Below, piece by piece: positions 42,847-48,727 of a DNA stretch of 64,000 nucleotides. The notes beneath the pieces were generated by a model, which saw nothing but the letters and a program-made list of their open reading frames with translations, ran no database searches and was not told the DNA's origin. The position numbers and the translations under genes were made by a program. The stretch is from Deltaproteobacteria bacterium. GTDB taxonomy: Bacteria; Myxococcota; JADLHZ01. Location: NCBI GenBank assembly GCA_020848545.1, contig JADLHZ010000025.1:62001-126000 (forward strand), written 5' to 3'. Within the stretch, counting starts at the first letter, position 1, and each line of letters starts with the position of its first letter.

Positions 42847-43224
42847 ATGATCAGCGATCCTCTCTCTCGCCGCGAACGCCAAATCATGGACGTCGTCTTC
42901 AAGCTCGGCCGCGCCACCGCCGCCGACGTGCAGGGCGCGCTCGAGGATCCGCCGAGCTACTCGGCCGTTCGCGCGCAGCTGCGCATCTTGGAAGACAAGG
43001 GCCACCTGCGCCACCGCCAGGACGGCCAGACCTACGTGTACGAGCCGCTGCGATCGAAGGAGAGCAAGACGAAGACGGAGCTGCGCCGCTTGCTCGACAC
43101 CTTCTTCGCCGGCTCGACGCGCCGAGCGATCAGCGCGCTCGTGGATCTCTCGGACGGCGAGCTCGACGATGACGAGCGCGTGCGGCTCAAGAAGCTCATC
43201 GACTCCAAGAAAAACGGAAAGTAG
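42847..43224 (+). CDS. BlaI/MecI-family repressor
   Basis: Winged-helix repressor of 125 aa. The N-terminal pattern 'PLSRRERQIMDVVFKLGRAT', the recognition helix region 'PSYSAVRAQLRILEDKGHLR' and wing 'HRQDGQTYVYEPL' are those of penicillinase repressors, followed by a helical dimerisation region. In known systems a BlaR1-type membrane protease triggers BlaI cleavage; here the M56 gene lies 13 bases downstream. Two palindromes abut the start codon, so the gene is almost certainly autorepressed. Some bacterial relatives respond to signals other than beta-lactam. Confidence 0.92.
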   Translation: MISDPLSRRERQIMDVVFKLGRATAADVQGALEDPPSYSAVRAQLRILEDKGHLRHRQDGQTYVYEPLRSKESKTKTELRRLLDTFFAGSTRRAISALVDLSDGELDDDERVRLKKLIDSKKNGK

Positions 43225-43237
43225 AGGAGGGAACGCC

Positions 43238-45055
43238 ATGGACCTCACCCGCATCATCGCTGTCTCACTCGTCAAAAGCGTCGTGCTCTTCGGCTTGTTT
43301 GCCGTGTTCGTGCGTTCGGTGCAGGGACCACGCGCGCGCTTTTGGATCTGGTGGGCGTTGCCCTTCGTCCTCATGGCCGACGTGCCGCTCATGTATCTCG
43401 GCATGACCAGCGTCGCGCCGCCGGCGTCGTTGCAACCCTTGCTTTCGCCGCTCACCGGCCCGGTCGAGCAGGCGATGGTCATCTCGGCGACCGGCGCGAA
43501 GCAGATCCAAGCGGTCGTGCGCGCGACACCGTTCAGCCTGCCGTCGCTGTGGGAGACGGGCGCGCTGCTCATGCTGCTCTATTTGATCGGCGGCGCAATC
43601 TGGGCCCGCGCGCGGCTCTTCGGGCGCAGCGGTCCCGTGTCCGAGCGGTCGAACGGCCTTCTCGCTCGTCACGCGCCGAAGCTTCACGCGCGCGCTGCCG
43701 ACGTCGCCACGCCCTTCGTCCTCGGGCTCTTCCGCCCGACGCTGTACTTGCCGCGCGAAGTCGACGCGTGGAGCGAAGCCGATCTCACCGCGGCCATCCT
43801 GCACGAGCGCGAGCACATCCGCCGCGGTGACGCGTGGCTCGACCTCGTGCCGACGCTCGCGTGCGCGCTCTTGTGGTTCAATCCGATCGCGTGGGTGGCG
43901 CGCCGGCGCATCGATCTCGAGCGCGAGATGGCGTGCGATCGTGCCGCTGTGCGTGGGGGCGCCGATCCCGCGGCGTTCGCCGACATGCTCCTGCGCCTGA
44001 CGCCGCGCCGCCAAGTCGGCTTTGCGATGGCGGCGACGAGGAAGGCGTTGAGCCGGCGCATCGAAGCGCTCGTGCTCAAGGTGCGGCCGAGCAGCGCCCG
44101 GCAATGGATGGCGCTCTTGCTCGTGCCTCTCACCGCCGCGGTGATCATGTGCCGTCCAGGGCAAGGCGAGGCCGAGGCGAGCGGGCTCGGACCGGTCGTT
44201 GATCTCAACCGTCAGGGCCGGCACACGGACGCGGCCCAGGTCGGCGCCGCGGCGCTCGCGACCTTGCCGCCGGGACGCATCCGCTGCGAGACGCTCTCTT
44301 CGACGGCGTACTCGCACGCGATGGCGGATGACTTCATCGCCGCCCGGGCGAGGACGCGCGAGTTCGACGCCCAGTGCGGCGAGCTCTCGGACAGAAATTG
44401 GGCGAAGGGCCAACGCTTCGCGCTCGACAAGAAGCTCGATCCAAAGGCGCACGCGGCGCGCGTCGCGGCGGCGTCAGCCGATCAGCTCGCCGAGATCGCG
44501 CTCGACCTGCATCGCATCGGCGAATGGAAGGAAGCGGTGATCCTCGCGCAGTCTGCGCTCAGCGGAAAGCCGAGCCCGGCGAACGTGTGCGTCGCGTGGG
44601 CGGTGCTCTCGTTGTCCAAAGGCGCGCAGAAGGATCGCGCCGGCGTGCGCGAAGCGTGGGAAGGTTTCGACGCGGCGTGCCCGAACGGAGTCGCCGAGCC
44701 GTGGATCTACAAAGAGATGAAGGACGTCGCCAAGGACGTCGAAGCGATGAGCCACGCGGGCGATCGCGGCATGGTCTACGAAGCGATGCGCGGCGCGCGG
44801 CCGGCGATGCTGAAGTGCTACGATGCCCTGCTCGTGAGAACCCCTGGCGTTGGCGGCAAGCTCGTCGCGCGCTTCGTCCTGAAGAACGGCGACGAGCACG
44901 CCCGTGGCACCGACGTCGTCATCGAGTCTACGACGCTGAACGACGAGGAGTTCGTGCGTTGCGTGAGCGGCGTGATCGAAGACGTCCGCTTCGCCAACGA
45001 TCCGAACGGCGGCGCCACCAACGTGAGCTACCCGTTCGCGTTCACGCCCAATTGA
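43238..45055 (+). CDS. M56 (BlaR1-like) membrane metallopeptidase with AgmX/PglI-like C-terminus
   Basis: Membrane protease of 605 aa with ribosome site GAGGAGGG before ATG 43238. Helices lie near 5-30, 35-60 and 105-125. The zinc site 'AAILHEREHIRRGDAW' (HExxH, residues 189-193) and downstream 'DLEREMACDRAAV' define M56. After another helix near 285-300, the extracytoplasmic part is TPR-like and ends in 'ARPAMLKCYDALLVRTPGVG' and 'KLVARFVLKNGDEHARG', the AgmX/PglI C-terminal domain common in myxobacteria. BlaR1 instead has a penicillin-binding domain, so the stimulus here is probably different. With the upstream BlaI gene it forms a signalling pair. Confidence 0.88.
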   Translation: MDLTRIIAVSLVKSVVLFGLFAVFVRSVQGPRARFWIWWALPFVLMADVPLMYLGMTSVAPPASLQPLLSPLTGPVEQAMVISATGAKQIQAVVRATPFSLPSLWETGALLMLLYLIGGAIWARARLFGRSGPVSERSNGLLARHAPKLHARAADVATPFVLGLFRPTLYLPREVDAWSEADLTAAILHEREHIRRGDAWLDLVPTLACALLWFNPIAWVARRRIDLEREMACDRAAVRGGADPAAFADMLLRLTPRRQVGFAMAATRKALSRRIEALVLKVRPSSARQWMALLLVPLTAAVIMCRPGQGEAEASGLGPVVDLNRQGRHTDAAQVGAAALATLPPGRIRCETLSSTAYSHAMADDFIAARARTREFDAQCGELSDRNWAKGQRFALDKKLDPKAHAARVAAASADQLAEIALDLHRIGEWKEAVILAQSALSGKPSPANVCVAWAVLSLSKGAQKDRAGVREAWEGFDAACPNGVAEPWIYKEMKDVAKDVEAMSHAGDRGMVYEAMRGARPAMLKCYDALLVRTPGVGGKLVARFVLKNGDEHARGTDVVIESTTLNDEEFVRCVSGVIEDVRFANDPNGGATNVSYPFAFTPN

Positions 45056-45154
45056 TGGCGCGCCGTACGACATACGCCCGCACAATCGCTTGCGCGCCGC
45101 CGGCTTTCGTGGGTGACTCTCCCGACTAAATAAATCTTAAGCGAGGGGCGCGCG

Positions 45155-45304
45155 ATGAAGATTCAAGGGAAGCAGACCGTCAGCGAGCAACGGGCGCTGT
45201 CGGACGTGAAGGCGAAGCTCGAGCAGCTCATCGAGAACACGCCGGCCAAAGGCGGAAGTCGCGCACGTCTGCTTCGTCACCGCGCTCGAGCGCTTCGGCA
45301 ATGA
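45155..45304 (+). pseudogene. Detached 5' fragment of the acyl-CoA dehydrogenase-like gene
   Basis: ATG 45155 has a well-spaced ribosome site (GAGGGG at 45143-45148) and opens a 49-codon frame (MKIQGKQTVSEQRALSDV..., then 'AKLEQLIENTPA') that stops at 45304. From about 45255 the acyl-CoA dehydrogenase sequence ('AEVAHVCFVTALERFGNDAQ') continues in another frame with no start codon of its own before TTG 45336. A single-base indel near 45250, perhaps with loss of part of the N-terminal domain, would explain this. It could instead be a real 49-aa leader peptide. Confidence 0.5.
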
Positions 45305-45335
45305 CGCACAAAAGCGGGCGTGGCTGCCGCGGCTG

Positions 45336-46706
45336 TTGAGCGGGGCAGCGCTCGGTGCCGTGGCCAACAGCGAGCCCGCCGCGGGCACCGACATCATGAG
45401 CCTGCGCGCGATCGCCGAGCCTGATGCCGGCGGTGGTTTTCGCTTGTTTGCGAGGAAGCGCAGCATCACCAACGTGTCGGAGGCCGACGTCGCCCTGTGC
45501 TCGGCGCGGATCGCTGGCGTCGATGCGAAGCGCGCTCTGAACATCTTCCTCGTCGAGACGACGACGCCGCGAGTGTACGCGCGCCGGCTCGATGACATGG
45601 CGGGGCTCCGCACCTCGCCGACCGGCCACTTGTTGGTGCGGCGCGCGCGGCTCGACGCTTCTGCGCTGCTTGGTGAGCTCGGCGGCGGCGTCGATTTCTT
45701 CCGCTACTGCTTCTCGCTCGAGCGGCTCTTGATTGGCCACTTGTACCTTGCGGCGATTCGCCGTTGCCAAGCCCGCGCGATCGCGTTCGTGTCGAGCAAG
45801 GACCTTGGAAAGCACCAATACGTGCAAGAGAAGATCGTGCGCATGCGGGTGGCCGAGGAGCTGCTCGAGAGCGAGCTGCAGCGCACGCTCGCGCGCTTCT
45901 CGCGGGGCGAGGACGTCTTCGCGGCGCTGAGCGTCGTGAAGATCTACGGCGTCGACGCGGCGATGCAGGCGGCGCAGGATCTCATCGGGCTCCTCGGCAG
46001 CGCCGGCATGCAGAAGCGCGAGCCCGCGGAGAAAGATCTGCGCGATCTGCTCGGCCTCTCGATCCTCGGCGGCACGGCCGAGCTACAAAAGATCGTCGTC
46101 TACAGCGAGACGATGAAGCGGGCGAAGGAGAGCGCCAAGGCATCGGCGCGCGACCCCTTGGGCGTGCGCGTCAGCGTGCATCCCCGCGCCGAGATCTGTG
46201 ATGCGTTGGCCAAAGAGCTCGTCGCGTTCGTTGCCGCCGTGATGCCGAACGAGCCCGCGCTCGCCGGAAAGTACTATTTCGACACGCCGCCGGACTTCGT
46301 CTTGATCGCGCGCGCGGGCGAGCGCATCGCAGGGATTCGCGTGCTCGTTCGGCGCGTCGTCTGGCTCGAAGGACGCGAGGTGCAGCTCGCCGGCATCGGC
46401 GTCGCCGTGCATCCGGATCATCGCGGCAGGGGGGTCGGCACGGCGCTCACCCGGCGGGCGTTGGAGATCGCGGAGCAGCAAGGCGCCGAGCTCGTGCTTG
46501 CGTTTCTATTGAATAGAAATGCGGAGTCCCTGCTCGCACGCTACGGTTTTCGCCGCTTGAACGCGGCGGTCAGCTACTTGGACTCGAAGAGCGGCGGGCT
46601 CGTGCAGGAGACGATGCCGGGCTACGCGAAGGGGCTCCGCGGGAGCGCGATCGTCGACGAGATCGAAGCGCGGGGGACGCTGCATCTCGGGGCGGGGACT
46701 TGGTGA
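45336..46706 (+). CDS. Acyl-CoA dehydrogenase fused to GNAT acetyltransferase, 5'-truncated
   Basis: From TTG 45336 the frame encodes 456 aa, but the homology begins upstream at about 45252 without a start codon. Residues of about 1-260 are acyl-CoA dehydrogenase-like: 'GAVANSEPAAGTDIMSL' (flavin/substrate loop), 'EKIVRMRVAEELLESEL' helices and 'LGGTAELQKIVVY', the C-terminal GGTxEIQ motif. The usual first helical domain of about 100 residues is largely missing. Residues of about 275-430 are a GNAT acetyltransferase with the acetyl-CoA loop 'HPDHRGRGVGTALTRRALEI' and 'NRNAESLLARYGFRR'. The fusion is unusual. Whether it is made in full depends on the frame break at about 45250; it may be a decaying gene. 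Confidence 0.7.
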   Translation: MSGAALGAVANSEPAAGTDIMSLRAIAEPDAGGGFRLFARKRSITNVSEADVALCSARIAGVDAKRALNIFLVETTTPRVYARRLDDMAGLRTSPTGHLLVRRARLDASALLGELGGGVDFFRYCFSLERLLIGHLYLAAIRRCQARAIAFVSSKDLGKHQYVQEKIVRMRVAEELLESELQRTLARFSRGEDVFAALSVVKIYGVDAAMQAAQDLIGLLGSAGMQKREPAEKDLRDLLGLSILGGTAELQKIVVYSETMKRAKESAKASARDPLGVRVSVHPRAEICDALAKELVAFVAAVMPNEPALAGKYYFDTPPDFVLIARAGERIAGIRVLVRRVVWLEGREVQLAGIGVAVHPDHRGRGVGTALTRRALEIAEQQGAELVLAFLLNRNAESLLARYGFRRLNAAVSYLDSKSGGLVQETMPGYAKGLRGSAIVDEIEARGTLHLGAGTW

Positions 46707-46889: not shown

Positions 46890-48203
46890 GTGCTCGACGC
46901 AATGCTCGTGCGTCTTCGTCACACGCTGCTCGGGAGCGAGCTGCTCGCTGCGGGAGAGGACAGCGCGACGGCGCTCGAGACGGGTTGGTTCTTGCGCTTG
47001 CGCTGGTGGGTCGCCGCGGCCCTCGCGGTCGCTTTGCTCACAGCGCGCTTCTTGCTCGAGCTGTCGCCGCCGCTGCTCGGTGGCTTCGGCGTCATCGCTG
47101 CCGCCGTGATCTCGAACTTGGCGGCCGCGCGCTGGGCAAAGGAGTGGCCGCCGTTTCGACTGCGAGGCGTGCTCCTCGTCGCCGACACCACTCTGCTCAC
47201 CATCATGCTTCAGCTGACCGGCGGCCCTTCGAACCCGTTCAGCCTCGTTTACCTCGTGCATGTCACGCTGGCCGCCGCGTTGATCGACGCGCGCTGGACC
47301 TGGATCATCGCTGGCTATTCGATCACCGCCTACGGCGCGCTCTTTTTTTTCGCCGAGGGCAGCGGTGATCACCACCACATGAGCGGCGAAGAGTACGCCA
47401 CCCACCTGCGCGCCATGTGGCTGGCGTTGGCGCTCGCCGCGATCTTCGCCGCCTACTTTGCCACGCGGCTTTCCTCGGCGCTTCGTGCGCACGCGGCTCG
47501 CTCGGCCGAGCTCGGCAAACGAGAGGCGGCCGCGCGCCGCATGATGAGCATGATGACCTTTGCTGCCGGAGCGGCCCACGAGCTCGGCACGCCGCTCGGC
47601 ACCATCGGCCTCGTCGCGTCCGAGCTGGAGCGCGTGTTCGCCGAACGCCAACGCATGGCGGCGAGCCCACACGCCGCGAGTGAGCTCGAGGATGTCCAGC
47701 TCATCGGACGAGAGGTGGCGCGCTGCCGCCGGATCCTCGACCGCATGCGCCCCGAGCTCGCCGAGTCGCCGCCGCGCGAGCACGACGCCGAAGCGCTGCT
47801 GCGTGACGCGCTGCCAGCGCCTCGCCCCGGCGTGACGCTCGAGCTCACGAGCGCAGGACCGAAGCGCATCCGCGCTCAGGCTGTCGCGGTGCAGCAAGTC
47901 GTCGGCATCGTCGTGGCCAACGCGCTCGACGCCGCCCGCGGCAGGGTTCGCGTACACGTGGAGGTAGAGCCCTCGACGCTCGTCATCACCGTGCGCGACG
48001 ACGGACCAGGGATGGATCCCGCGATGCTCGCCCGTCTGGGAGAGCCGTTTTTCACCACGAAGGGCCCGGGTCGCGGCATCGGCCTCGGCTTGTTCGTCGC
48101 CAAGACGATCGTCTCCACGCTCGACGGCGCGTTGACGCACGAGTCCGCGGAAGGCCAGGGCACCACCGCGACGGTCCGCCTCCGCATCGAGGTGATCGCA
48201 TGA
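46890..48203 (+). CDS. regB: Redox-sensing histidine kinase RegB/PrrB family
   Basis: Sensor kinase of 437 aa starting at GTG 46890 (an ATG at 46902 is an alternative). Six membrane helices span about residues 38-195 and contain the RegB quinone-site motif 'GGPSNPFSLVYLVHVTLAAA'. The H box is 'GAAHELGTPLGTI' with His near 230. A Cys near 279 in 'EVARCRRILDRM' matches the position of the redox-active RegB cysteine. The ATPase domain has 'VVANALDAARG', 'DDGPGMD' and 'GIGLGLFVAKTIV'. In proteobacteria RegBA controls respiration, photosynthesis and carbon or nitrogen fixation genes in response to quinone redox state. It overlaps regA by ATGA. Confidence 0.92.
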   Translation: MLDAMLVRLRHTLLGSELLAAGEDSATALETGWFLRLRWWVAAALAVALLTARFLLELSPPLLGGFGVIAAAVISNLAAARWAKEWPPFRLRGVLLVADTTLLTIMLQLTGGPSNPFSLVYLVHVTLAAALIDARWTWIIAGYSITAYGALFFFAEGSGDHHHMSGEEYATHLRAMWLALALAAIFAAYFATRLSSALRAHAARSAELGKREAAARRMMSMMTFAAGAAHELGTPLGTIGLVASELERVFAERQRMAASPHAASELEDVQLIGREVARCRRILDRMRPELAESPPREHDAEALLRDALPAPRPGVTLELTSAGPKRIRAQAVAVQQVVGIVVANALDAARGRVRVHVEVEPSTLVITVRDDGPGMDPAMLARLGEPFFTTKGPGRGIGLGLFVAKTIVSTLDGALTHESAEGQGTTATVRLRIEVIA

Positions 48204-48727
48204 GCGCAGAAGCCTTCTTGTTGGTCGACGACGACGCAGTGTTCAGGTCGCGCCTCGCCCGCGCCTTTCGCGAGCGTGGCTACGATGTGCGCGAGGCCGC
48301 CACCGTAGAGCAAGCAGAAGCGGCGGCGTGCGAGGACTCGCCCGAGTTCGCCGTCCTCGACCTGCGCTTGGCCGAGGGCTCCGGCCTCGACGTGGCGCGC
48401 CGCCTGCTCGAGATCGATCCGGCCACGCGCATCGTCATGCTGACGGGGTACGGCAGCATCGCCAACACCGTGCAAGCGATGCGGCTAGGTGTCGTGGGCT
48501 ACCTGACCAAGCCCGCCAGCGTGGACGACATCCTGCGCGCGCTCGAGCTGCTGGCGCCCGGCGCCGCTGCCGAGGAGACGGTGCCGTCGCTCTCACGCGT
48601 CGAATGGGAGCACATCAATCGCGTGCTCGAAGACTGCGGCGGAAACGTTTCGGCCGCAGCGCGGATCCTCGGGCTGCACCGACGCTCGCTGCAGCGAAAA
48701 CTCCAGCGCTATCCGTCCGCGCGTTGA
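48200..48727 (+). CDS. regA: Response regulator RegA/PrrA/ActR family
   Basis: Regulator of 175 aa. The receiver domain has the acidic pair 'VDDDAVF', phospho-Asp near residue 54 in 'FAVLDLRLAEGSGLDVA' and Lys near 104 in 'GYLTKPAS'. The Fis-type DNA-binding end 'NVSAAARILGLHRRSLQRKL' is the strongly conserved RegA helix-turn-helix. Its start overlaps the regB stop. It is convergent, end to end, with a barrel/redoxin/YtkA operon, which is a candidate target by proximity only. Confidence 0.95.
   Translation: MSAEAFLLVDDDAVFRSRLARAFRERGYDVREAATVEQAEAAACEDSPEFAVLDLRLAEGSGLDVARRLLEIDPATRIVMLTGYGSIANTVQAMRLGVVGYLTKPASVDDILRALELLAPGAAAEETVPSLSRVEWEHINRVLEDCGGNVSAAARILGLHRRSLQRKLQRYPSAR

What the first reader, a model, noticed from the sequence alone, without database searches (positions are those of the whole stretch)
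45155..46706. Acyl-CoA dehydrogenase-GNAT fusion with a broken 5' end
A well-signalled start at 45155 opens a frame that dies after 49 codons while dehydrogenase sequence begins in another frame near 45252. Most of the N-terminal dehydrogenase domain is missing, yet the C-terminal GNAT domain is intact. This may be a decaying gene, an assembly error, programmed frameshifting, or a fusion being reduced to its GNAT part.
Basis: partly seen in the sequence, partly recalled or inferred. Interest (0 to 1): 0.5.

Follow-up and report, generated by a model that had tools for sequence, protein, structure and literature searches.

The report
Broken dehydrogenase-acetyltransferase fusion gene
A two-domain enzyme gene has lost its beginning and a short piece of its likely cofactor-binding site, and now starts with the first codons of an unrelated reading frame; it looks like an ordinary, fairly recent gene disruption and not a new mechanism.

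Summary
ATG 45155 opens a 49-codon frame. Codon usage switches to another frame at about 45250, where dehydrogenase (ACAD) homology begins, at the last 27 or so positions of the Pfam N-terminal domain; no ATG/GTG/TTG lies in that frame before 45336. Relatives were found in 7 of 194 other genomes of the phylum: six fused ACAD-GNAT proteins and one split pair. All seven keep the N-terminal domain: 81-86 residues (72 in the split ACAD) precede the point where the window's homology begins. The window copy also lacks five residues containing R-x-x-F-G, present in all seven. The GNAT half is intact. Neither half evolves unusually fast, so the lesions look recent. The opening 32 codons have no recognised relative. 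Best reading: a deletion joined the start of another gene, out of frame, to codon ~82-87 of a fusion gene and disabled the dehydrogenase. An assembly error cannot be excluded. Programmed frameshifting is not supported; reduction to the GNAT part is unsupported but not excluded.

The parts
45141..45150 (+). Shine-Dalgarno-like stretch before ATG 45155
   Evidence: duplex energy -6.7
45155..45304 (+). 49-codon ORF (with stop); codons 1-32 (to about 45250) look like the start of an unidentified gene, the rest is ACAD sequence read in another frame
   Evidence: no family match; single copy in own genome
45249..45258 (+). junction where coding frame and homology switch
45252..46130 (+). ACAD body: end of N-terminal domain, middle and C-terminal domains; first usable start TTG 45336
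   Evidence: Pfam PF02770, PF00441; alignment
45798..45803 (+). site of a 5-residue in-frame loss that removes the R-x-x-F-G motif present in all 7 relatives
   Evidence: alignment
46158..46706 (+). GNAT acetyltransferase domain, intact, with the H-R-G-R-G-V-G loop
   Evidence: Pfam PF00583, PF13527, PF13508; alignment

Best explanation
This is a disrupted copy of an ACAD-GNAT fusion gene. A deletion removed the first ~81-86 codons of the dehydrogenase together with the remainder of a different gene that starts at 45155, and joined the two out of frame at about 45250. A second, in-frame loss of 15 bases removed the R-x-x-F-G motif, which by recall lies at the FAD site. Translation from 45155 ends after 49 codons; any product of the rest would need an internal start (TTG 45336 or later) and would carry a dehydrogenase without most of its N-terminal domain, so dehydrogenase activity is most likely lost. 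Shown: the frame switch, the missing residues, the lost motif and the relatives that have both. Inferred: that a deletion caused it, that the first 32 codons come from another gene, that the enzyme is inactive, and that the event is recent.
For: All 7 relatives found (6 fused, 1 split) have the N-terminal domain. The codon signature changes frame at one point that coincides with the start of homology. The junction cuts inside the N-domain, not at its border. R-x-x-F-G is present in 7 of 7 relatives and absent here. No start codon in frame before 45336, and the three nearest have weak computed SD pairing (-2.6, -4.7 and -2.6 against -6.7 at 45155). Substitution pace is normal in both halves, as expected if the lesions are young.
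Against: The 484-codon remainder is free of frameshifts and stops, and both halves are conserved, which would also fit a product still in use. Further inside, TTG 45444 has strong computed SD pairing (-9.5) and GTG 46176 has -5.4, so a still shorter product is conceivable. The donor of the first 32 codons could not be identified, so the size of the deletion is unknown. Every relative listed is of the same phylum only, so no close relative showed the ancestral state of this locus.
Confidence: 0.6

Rival explanations
1. Assembly or sequencing artefact: the true locus carries a complete gene, and sequence was dropped or mis-joined at about 45250.
For: Draft assembly of 163 contigs; the ACAD body looks uneroded apart from the two gaps; reads are not available.
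Against: The junction region is single copy, and among the 40 matches reported (its own place included) none elsewhere is long enough to suggest a repeat-driven mis-join (longest exact one 25 bases). The missing N-terminus is not elsewhere in the assembly: all 8 matches (best 31% identity) lie at the ACAD genes already listed. A second, independent 15-base gap lies about 550 bases away.
Confidence: 0.22
2. A still functional, shortened protein: the ACAD body survives as a non-catalytic scaffold carrying the GNAT domain, made from an internal start. One route is re-initiation: the 49-codon frame ends in ATGA (45301-45304), a 12-codon mini-ORF from that ATG ends at TGA 45337-45339, which overlaps TTG 45336, the first in-frame start.
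For: Open frame with normal codon usage throughout; GNAT intact; ACAD body conserved; the two stop-start overlaps are in the sequence; strong computed SD pairing at TTG 45444 (-9.5).
Against: Such overlaps and G-rich stretches arise by chance in a 67% GC sequence; TTG 45336 itself has weak SD pairing (-2.6); the truncation cuts through a folded domain, and a start at 45444 would remove more of the middle domain; none of the 7 relatives has such a form.
Confidence: 0.13
3. Programmed frameshifting joins the 45155 frame to the ACAD frame to make one protein.
For: The two frames overlap between 45210 and 45304.
Against: No recognisable slippery site seen by eye; none of the 7 relatives has the arrangement; the joined product would still lack the N-terminal domain, because the first 32 codons do not resemble it (14%, 72% and 19% of shuffles reach the score against three ACAD N-termini).
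Confidence: 0.02

Closest known systems
ACAD-GNAT fusion proteins of the same phylum (loci L038, L055, L056-L059)
   Same: Same domain order (ACAD then GNAT), 48-58% identity in the ACAD body and 38-50% in GNAT, same C-terminal ending L/I-H-L-G-x-G
   Different: The relatives are full length (567, 571 and 570 aa as read here for G022, G102 and G096) with the N-terminal domain and the R-x-x-F-G motif; the window copy lacks both
L-prolyl-carrier-protein dehydrogenases (RedW NF045652, PigA NF053553, PDB 4irn) and isovaleryl-CoA dehydrogenase (PDB 4kto)
   Same: Best named matches of the ACAD part; E-R at the place of isovaleryl-CoA dehydrogenase's E-R in the helix that holds its catalytic base (role recalled), and G-G-T where the short-chain enzymes have E-G-T
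   Different: Scores are far below the family cut-offs (205.5 against 650 bits for the intact G102 relative); the models and chains are only 376-416 long, with no room for a GNAT domain; the substrate here is unknown
Bacterial pseudogenes formed by deletion between neighbouring genes (general knowledge)
   Same: Two coding sequences joined out of frame at one point, remainder uneroded
   Different: The donor of the first 32 codons is unknown and no ancestral locus was available

Membership tests
Acyl-CoA dehydrogenase | N-terminal helical domain (PF02771) | tested here: not met
   Only positions 86-112 of 113 remain, below the cut-off
Acyl-CoA dehydrogenase | Middle and C-terminal domains (PF02770, PF00441) | tested here: met
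   45.4 and 69.8 bits, above cut-offs
Acyl-CoA dehydrogenase | R-x-x-F-G motif near FAD (role recalled) | tested here: not met
   Absent in the window, present in 7 of 7 relatives. The motif is not strict in the wider family: PDB 4irn has H-K-Q-F-G at this place
Acyl-CoA dehydrogenase | Enzymatic activity | not testable with these tools
   Needs expression and assay
GNAT acetyltransferase | GNAT fold profile and the Q/R-x-x-G-x-G/A loop (loop rule recalled) | tested here: met
   PF00583 44.8 bits, PF13527, PF13508, all above cut-offs; H-R-G-R-G-V-G
ACAD-GNAT fusion (this phylum) | One open frame with a full ACAD followed by GNAT | tested here: not met
   5' part missing and out of frame; the remainder aligns to its last residue
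Programmed frameshift gene | Conserved frame arrangement in relatives | tested here: not met
   All 6 fused relatives are in a single frame without stops

The most novel reading that the evidence does not exclude
The locus makes a shortened, non-oxidising ACAD body fused to a working GNAT domain, translated through two successive stop-start overlaps (ATGA, then TTGA) or from another internal start, so that a dehydrogenase has been turned into a carrier or scaffold for acetyl transfer.
Probability: 0.1. Interest if true: 0.45.

Novelty: new member of a known kind. Interest (0 to 1): 0.15.

Why it matters
As a broken gene it matters little beyond correct annotation: the 456-aa ORF should not be called a working dehydrogenase. 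The relatives are of more interest. They define an ACAD-GNAT fusion that in two genomes (G022, G102) is encoded with an ATP-grasp ligase and an alpha-oxoamine synthase. Two narrow full-text searches for that gene set and two for the fusion returned no paper.

Tried and rejected
Identity of the first 32 codons: no Pfam or NCBIfam match; one copy in the genome; a scan of 195 genomes gave matches at E up to 0.5 in 7 others, best E 0.048. One search printed the frames of those seven loci at the default match position; that position was not checked for each and is probably wrong for at least the short locus L076; none of the frames read suggested a gene that starts like this peptide. Pairwise comparison with small upstream ORFs, ATP-grasp, AOS and ACAD N-termini gave nothing firm (nine comparisons, lowest shuffle fraction 4%, with the 162-aa upstream protein of G022). 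I had suspected that the peptide was the start of a small gene ahead of the ATP-grasp gene in G022/G102, because of a shared 'KGG'; the test did not support it. A 25-base exact match elsewhere lies at the end of a 167-codon frame that reads like a YqeY-type protein (name recalled) and was judged a chance match of common codons; no probability was computed for that beyond the E-value (2.4e-5, which takes no account of codon bias).

Relaxed selection on the ACAD half: not seen. Shared gene order: five flanking window proteins against the seven relatives' loci gave two matches, both generic dehydrogenase and kinase-ATPase similarities. Missing N-terminus elsewhere in the genome: not found. Alpha-oxoamine synthase partner in own genome: two distant matches only (30% and 27% identity). 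Since the four g59 genomes have the fusion with no match to that synthase or to the ATP-grasp protein in the ~20 kb fetched around it, its absence here is not evidence of deletion. Plasmid records hold no near DNA match, and no record has a place that covers 80% of the fusion. One genome-contig scan gave two hits, 30% and 29% identical, in Paraburkholderia and Burkholderia. Phyla other than the window's were not scanned with the fusion beyond. The GNAT part has only weak matches among solved structures (best E 2.1e-5). Papers: five searches returned no papers; no paper was read.

Not done: structure prediction. The homologues come from the genome search, which the tool does not list as an allowed source, and a single-sequence model of a truncated protein would not settle the question.

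Full report
Observation. The window is G000:C25:62001-126000 of a 7.99-Mb, 163-contig genome. ATG 45155 has a good ribosome-binding stretch and opens 49 codons ending at TGA 45302-45304. The dehydrogenase frame is open from 45210, but its first ATG/GTG/TTG is TTG 45336. Codon usage, trained on nine neighbouring genes, favours frame 2 for 45155-45250 (+0.65 per codon; other frames -0.71 and -0.62) and frame 0 from 45252 on (+0.66 over 17 codons); a larger training set, which included this ORF, puts the start of coding in the ACAD frame at 45249. As a control, 52 well-coding ORFs of the window were scored with this ORF left out of training; it has the strongest coding signal ahead of its first possible start (14.0; next 8.3). 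So two stretches that both look coding meet at about 45250, out of frame.

What is missing. Pfam finds positions 86-112 of the 113-position ACAD N-domain (sub-threshold), then middle and C-terminal ACAD domains and a GNAT domain. A search of 195 genomes of the phylum, the window's own included (limit 1e-40), gave 8 genomes with a match: the window's own and 7 others. Six of the others hold a single-frame ACAD-GNAT fusion (G022, G095, G096, G098, G099, G102); in G054, ACAD and GNAT are separate genes. All seven start with the N-domain. Residues before the first window-aligned column: G022 84, G102 81, G096 85, G099 86, G098 85, G095 85, and 72 in the split G054 protein; start codons were taken as read, not proven. 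Pfam confirms the N-domain in G022, G096 and G054; for G102 it follows from full-length matches to named ACAD families and PDB chains, for the other three from the alignment. None of the seven starts near 45336.

A second lesion. In the ACAD C-terminal domain the window reads F-V-S-S-K-D-L-G-K-H-Q where all seven relatives have five more residues including R-x-x-F-G. By recall from medium-chain acyl-CoA dehydrogenase, this Arg and Phe contact FAD; this was not tested here, a paper search for it found nothing, and one solved relative (4irn) has His in place of the Arg. The Glu in the F-S/T-x-E-R helix (putative catalytic base, recalled) and the G-G-T loop are unchanged; isovaleryl-CoA dehydrogenase aligns with E-R and G-T at the same places.

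Age and selection. Identity of the window to G102 is 58% in the ACAD body and 45% in GNAT; to the g59 group 53-55% and 48-50%. In trees the window tip is 0.44 (ACAD) and 0.51 (GNAT), against 0.41 and 0.61 for G102; deep nodes are weakly supported, several at 54-57%. Of positions invariant in four other lineages the window changes 12 of 86 in ACAD (G022 14 of 88, G102 7 of 81, G096 18 of 92, G054 11 of 85) and 4 of 37 in GNAT (13 of 46, 4 of 37, 4 of 37, 9 of 42). Neither half has drifted, so the lesions are young on this scale, or else the whole remainder is still constrained; these data cannot separate the two, and they give no sign that GNAT is kept while ACAD decays.

The opening 32 codons. 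They match no Pfam or NCBIfam family, occur once in the genome and have no convincing relative in 195 genomes. They do not resemble an ACAD N-terminus or the other proteins of the relatives' clusters beyond chance. The simplest reading, inferred, is that they are the start of another gene, placed after the BlaR-type gene that ends at 45055, whose remainder was lost in the same deletion.

Artefact or real. The junction is single copy and none of the matches reported elsewhere is a long repeat; the missing N-terminus is not elsewhere in the assembly. This argues against a simple mis-join but does not exclude dropped sequence. Without reads or a close relative the question stays open.

Expression of the remainder. 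The 49-codon frame ends in ATGA (45301-45304); a 12-codon frame from that ATG ends in TGA 45337-45339, overlapping TTG 45336. Re-initiation could thus deliver a 456-aa product, but TTG 45336 has weak SD pairing (-2.6 kcal/mol) and the overlaps may be chance. Against a simple 'no start' reading, TTG 45444 has strong computed pairing (-9.5) and GTG 46176 has -5.4; the first would give a product lacking part of the middle domain, the second a GNAT domain alone. Nothing here shows that either is used.

Verdict. An ordinary disrupted gene, correctly spotted. The relatives are the more interesting lead: in G022 the fusion directly follows an ATP-grasp and an alpha-oxoamine synthase gene; in G102 the same three occur in the same order, with one more ORF carrying an ASH domain between the synthase and the fusion. 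In G054 all four activities are clustered with ACAD and GNAT split. In the four g59 genomes the fusion has neither of the other two in the ~20 kb fetched.

Noticed in passing
L038:4139-8613; L055:3911-9406 (minus strand); L039:129-4155: Recurring set of ATP-grasp (D-Ala-D-Ala ligase-like), alpha-oxoamine synthase (BioF/serine palmitoyltransferase-like) and ACAD plus GNAT (fused in two genomes, split in one; in L055 an ASH-domain ORF lies between synthase and fusion); possibly an undescribed biosynthetic route. A GNAT and an alpha-oxoamine synthase also occur together in the saxitoxin enzyme SxtA (recalled).
   Followed up: partly
L038:3608-4096; L055:9411-9668 (minus strand): Small proteins of unknown family upstream of the ATP-grasp gene in both G022 and G102, 34% identical over 64 residues; further upstream, longer ORFs ending in S/G-W-L/I-N.
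   Followed up: partly
L056-L059: Four genomes of one genus (about 12.5-13.8 Mb) carry the full ACAD-GNAT fusion without a match to the ATP-grasp or alpha-oxoamine synthase proteins within the ~20 kb fetched; in two of them (G095, G098) a 46-47% identical synthase lies elsewhere.
   Followed up: partly
window 42847-45055: BlaI-type repressor followed by a BlaR1-type M56 peptidase gene with a long C-terminal part that matches no Pfam family at 1e-5; no search was made for a beta-lactamase.
   Followed up: no
window 46890-48727: Histidine kinase with a PilS-like membrane domain and a Fis-type response regulator as an overlapping pair just downstream.
   Followed up: no
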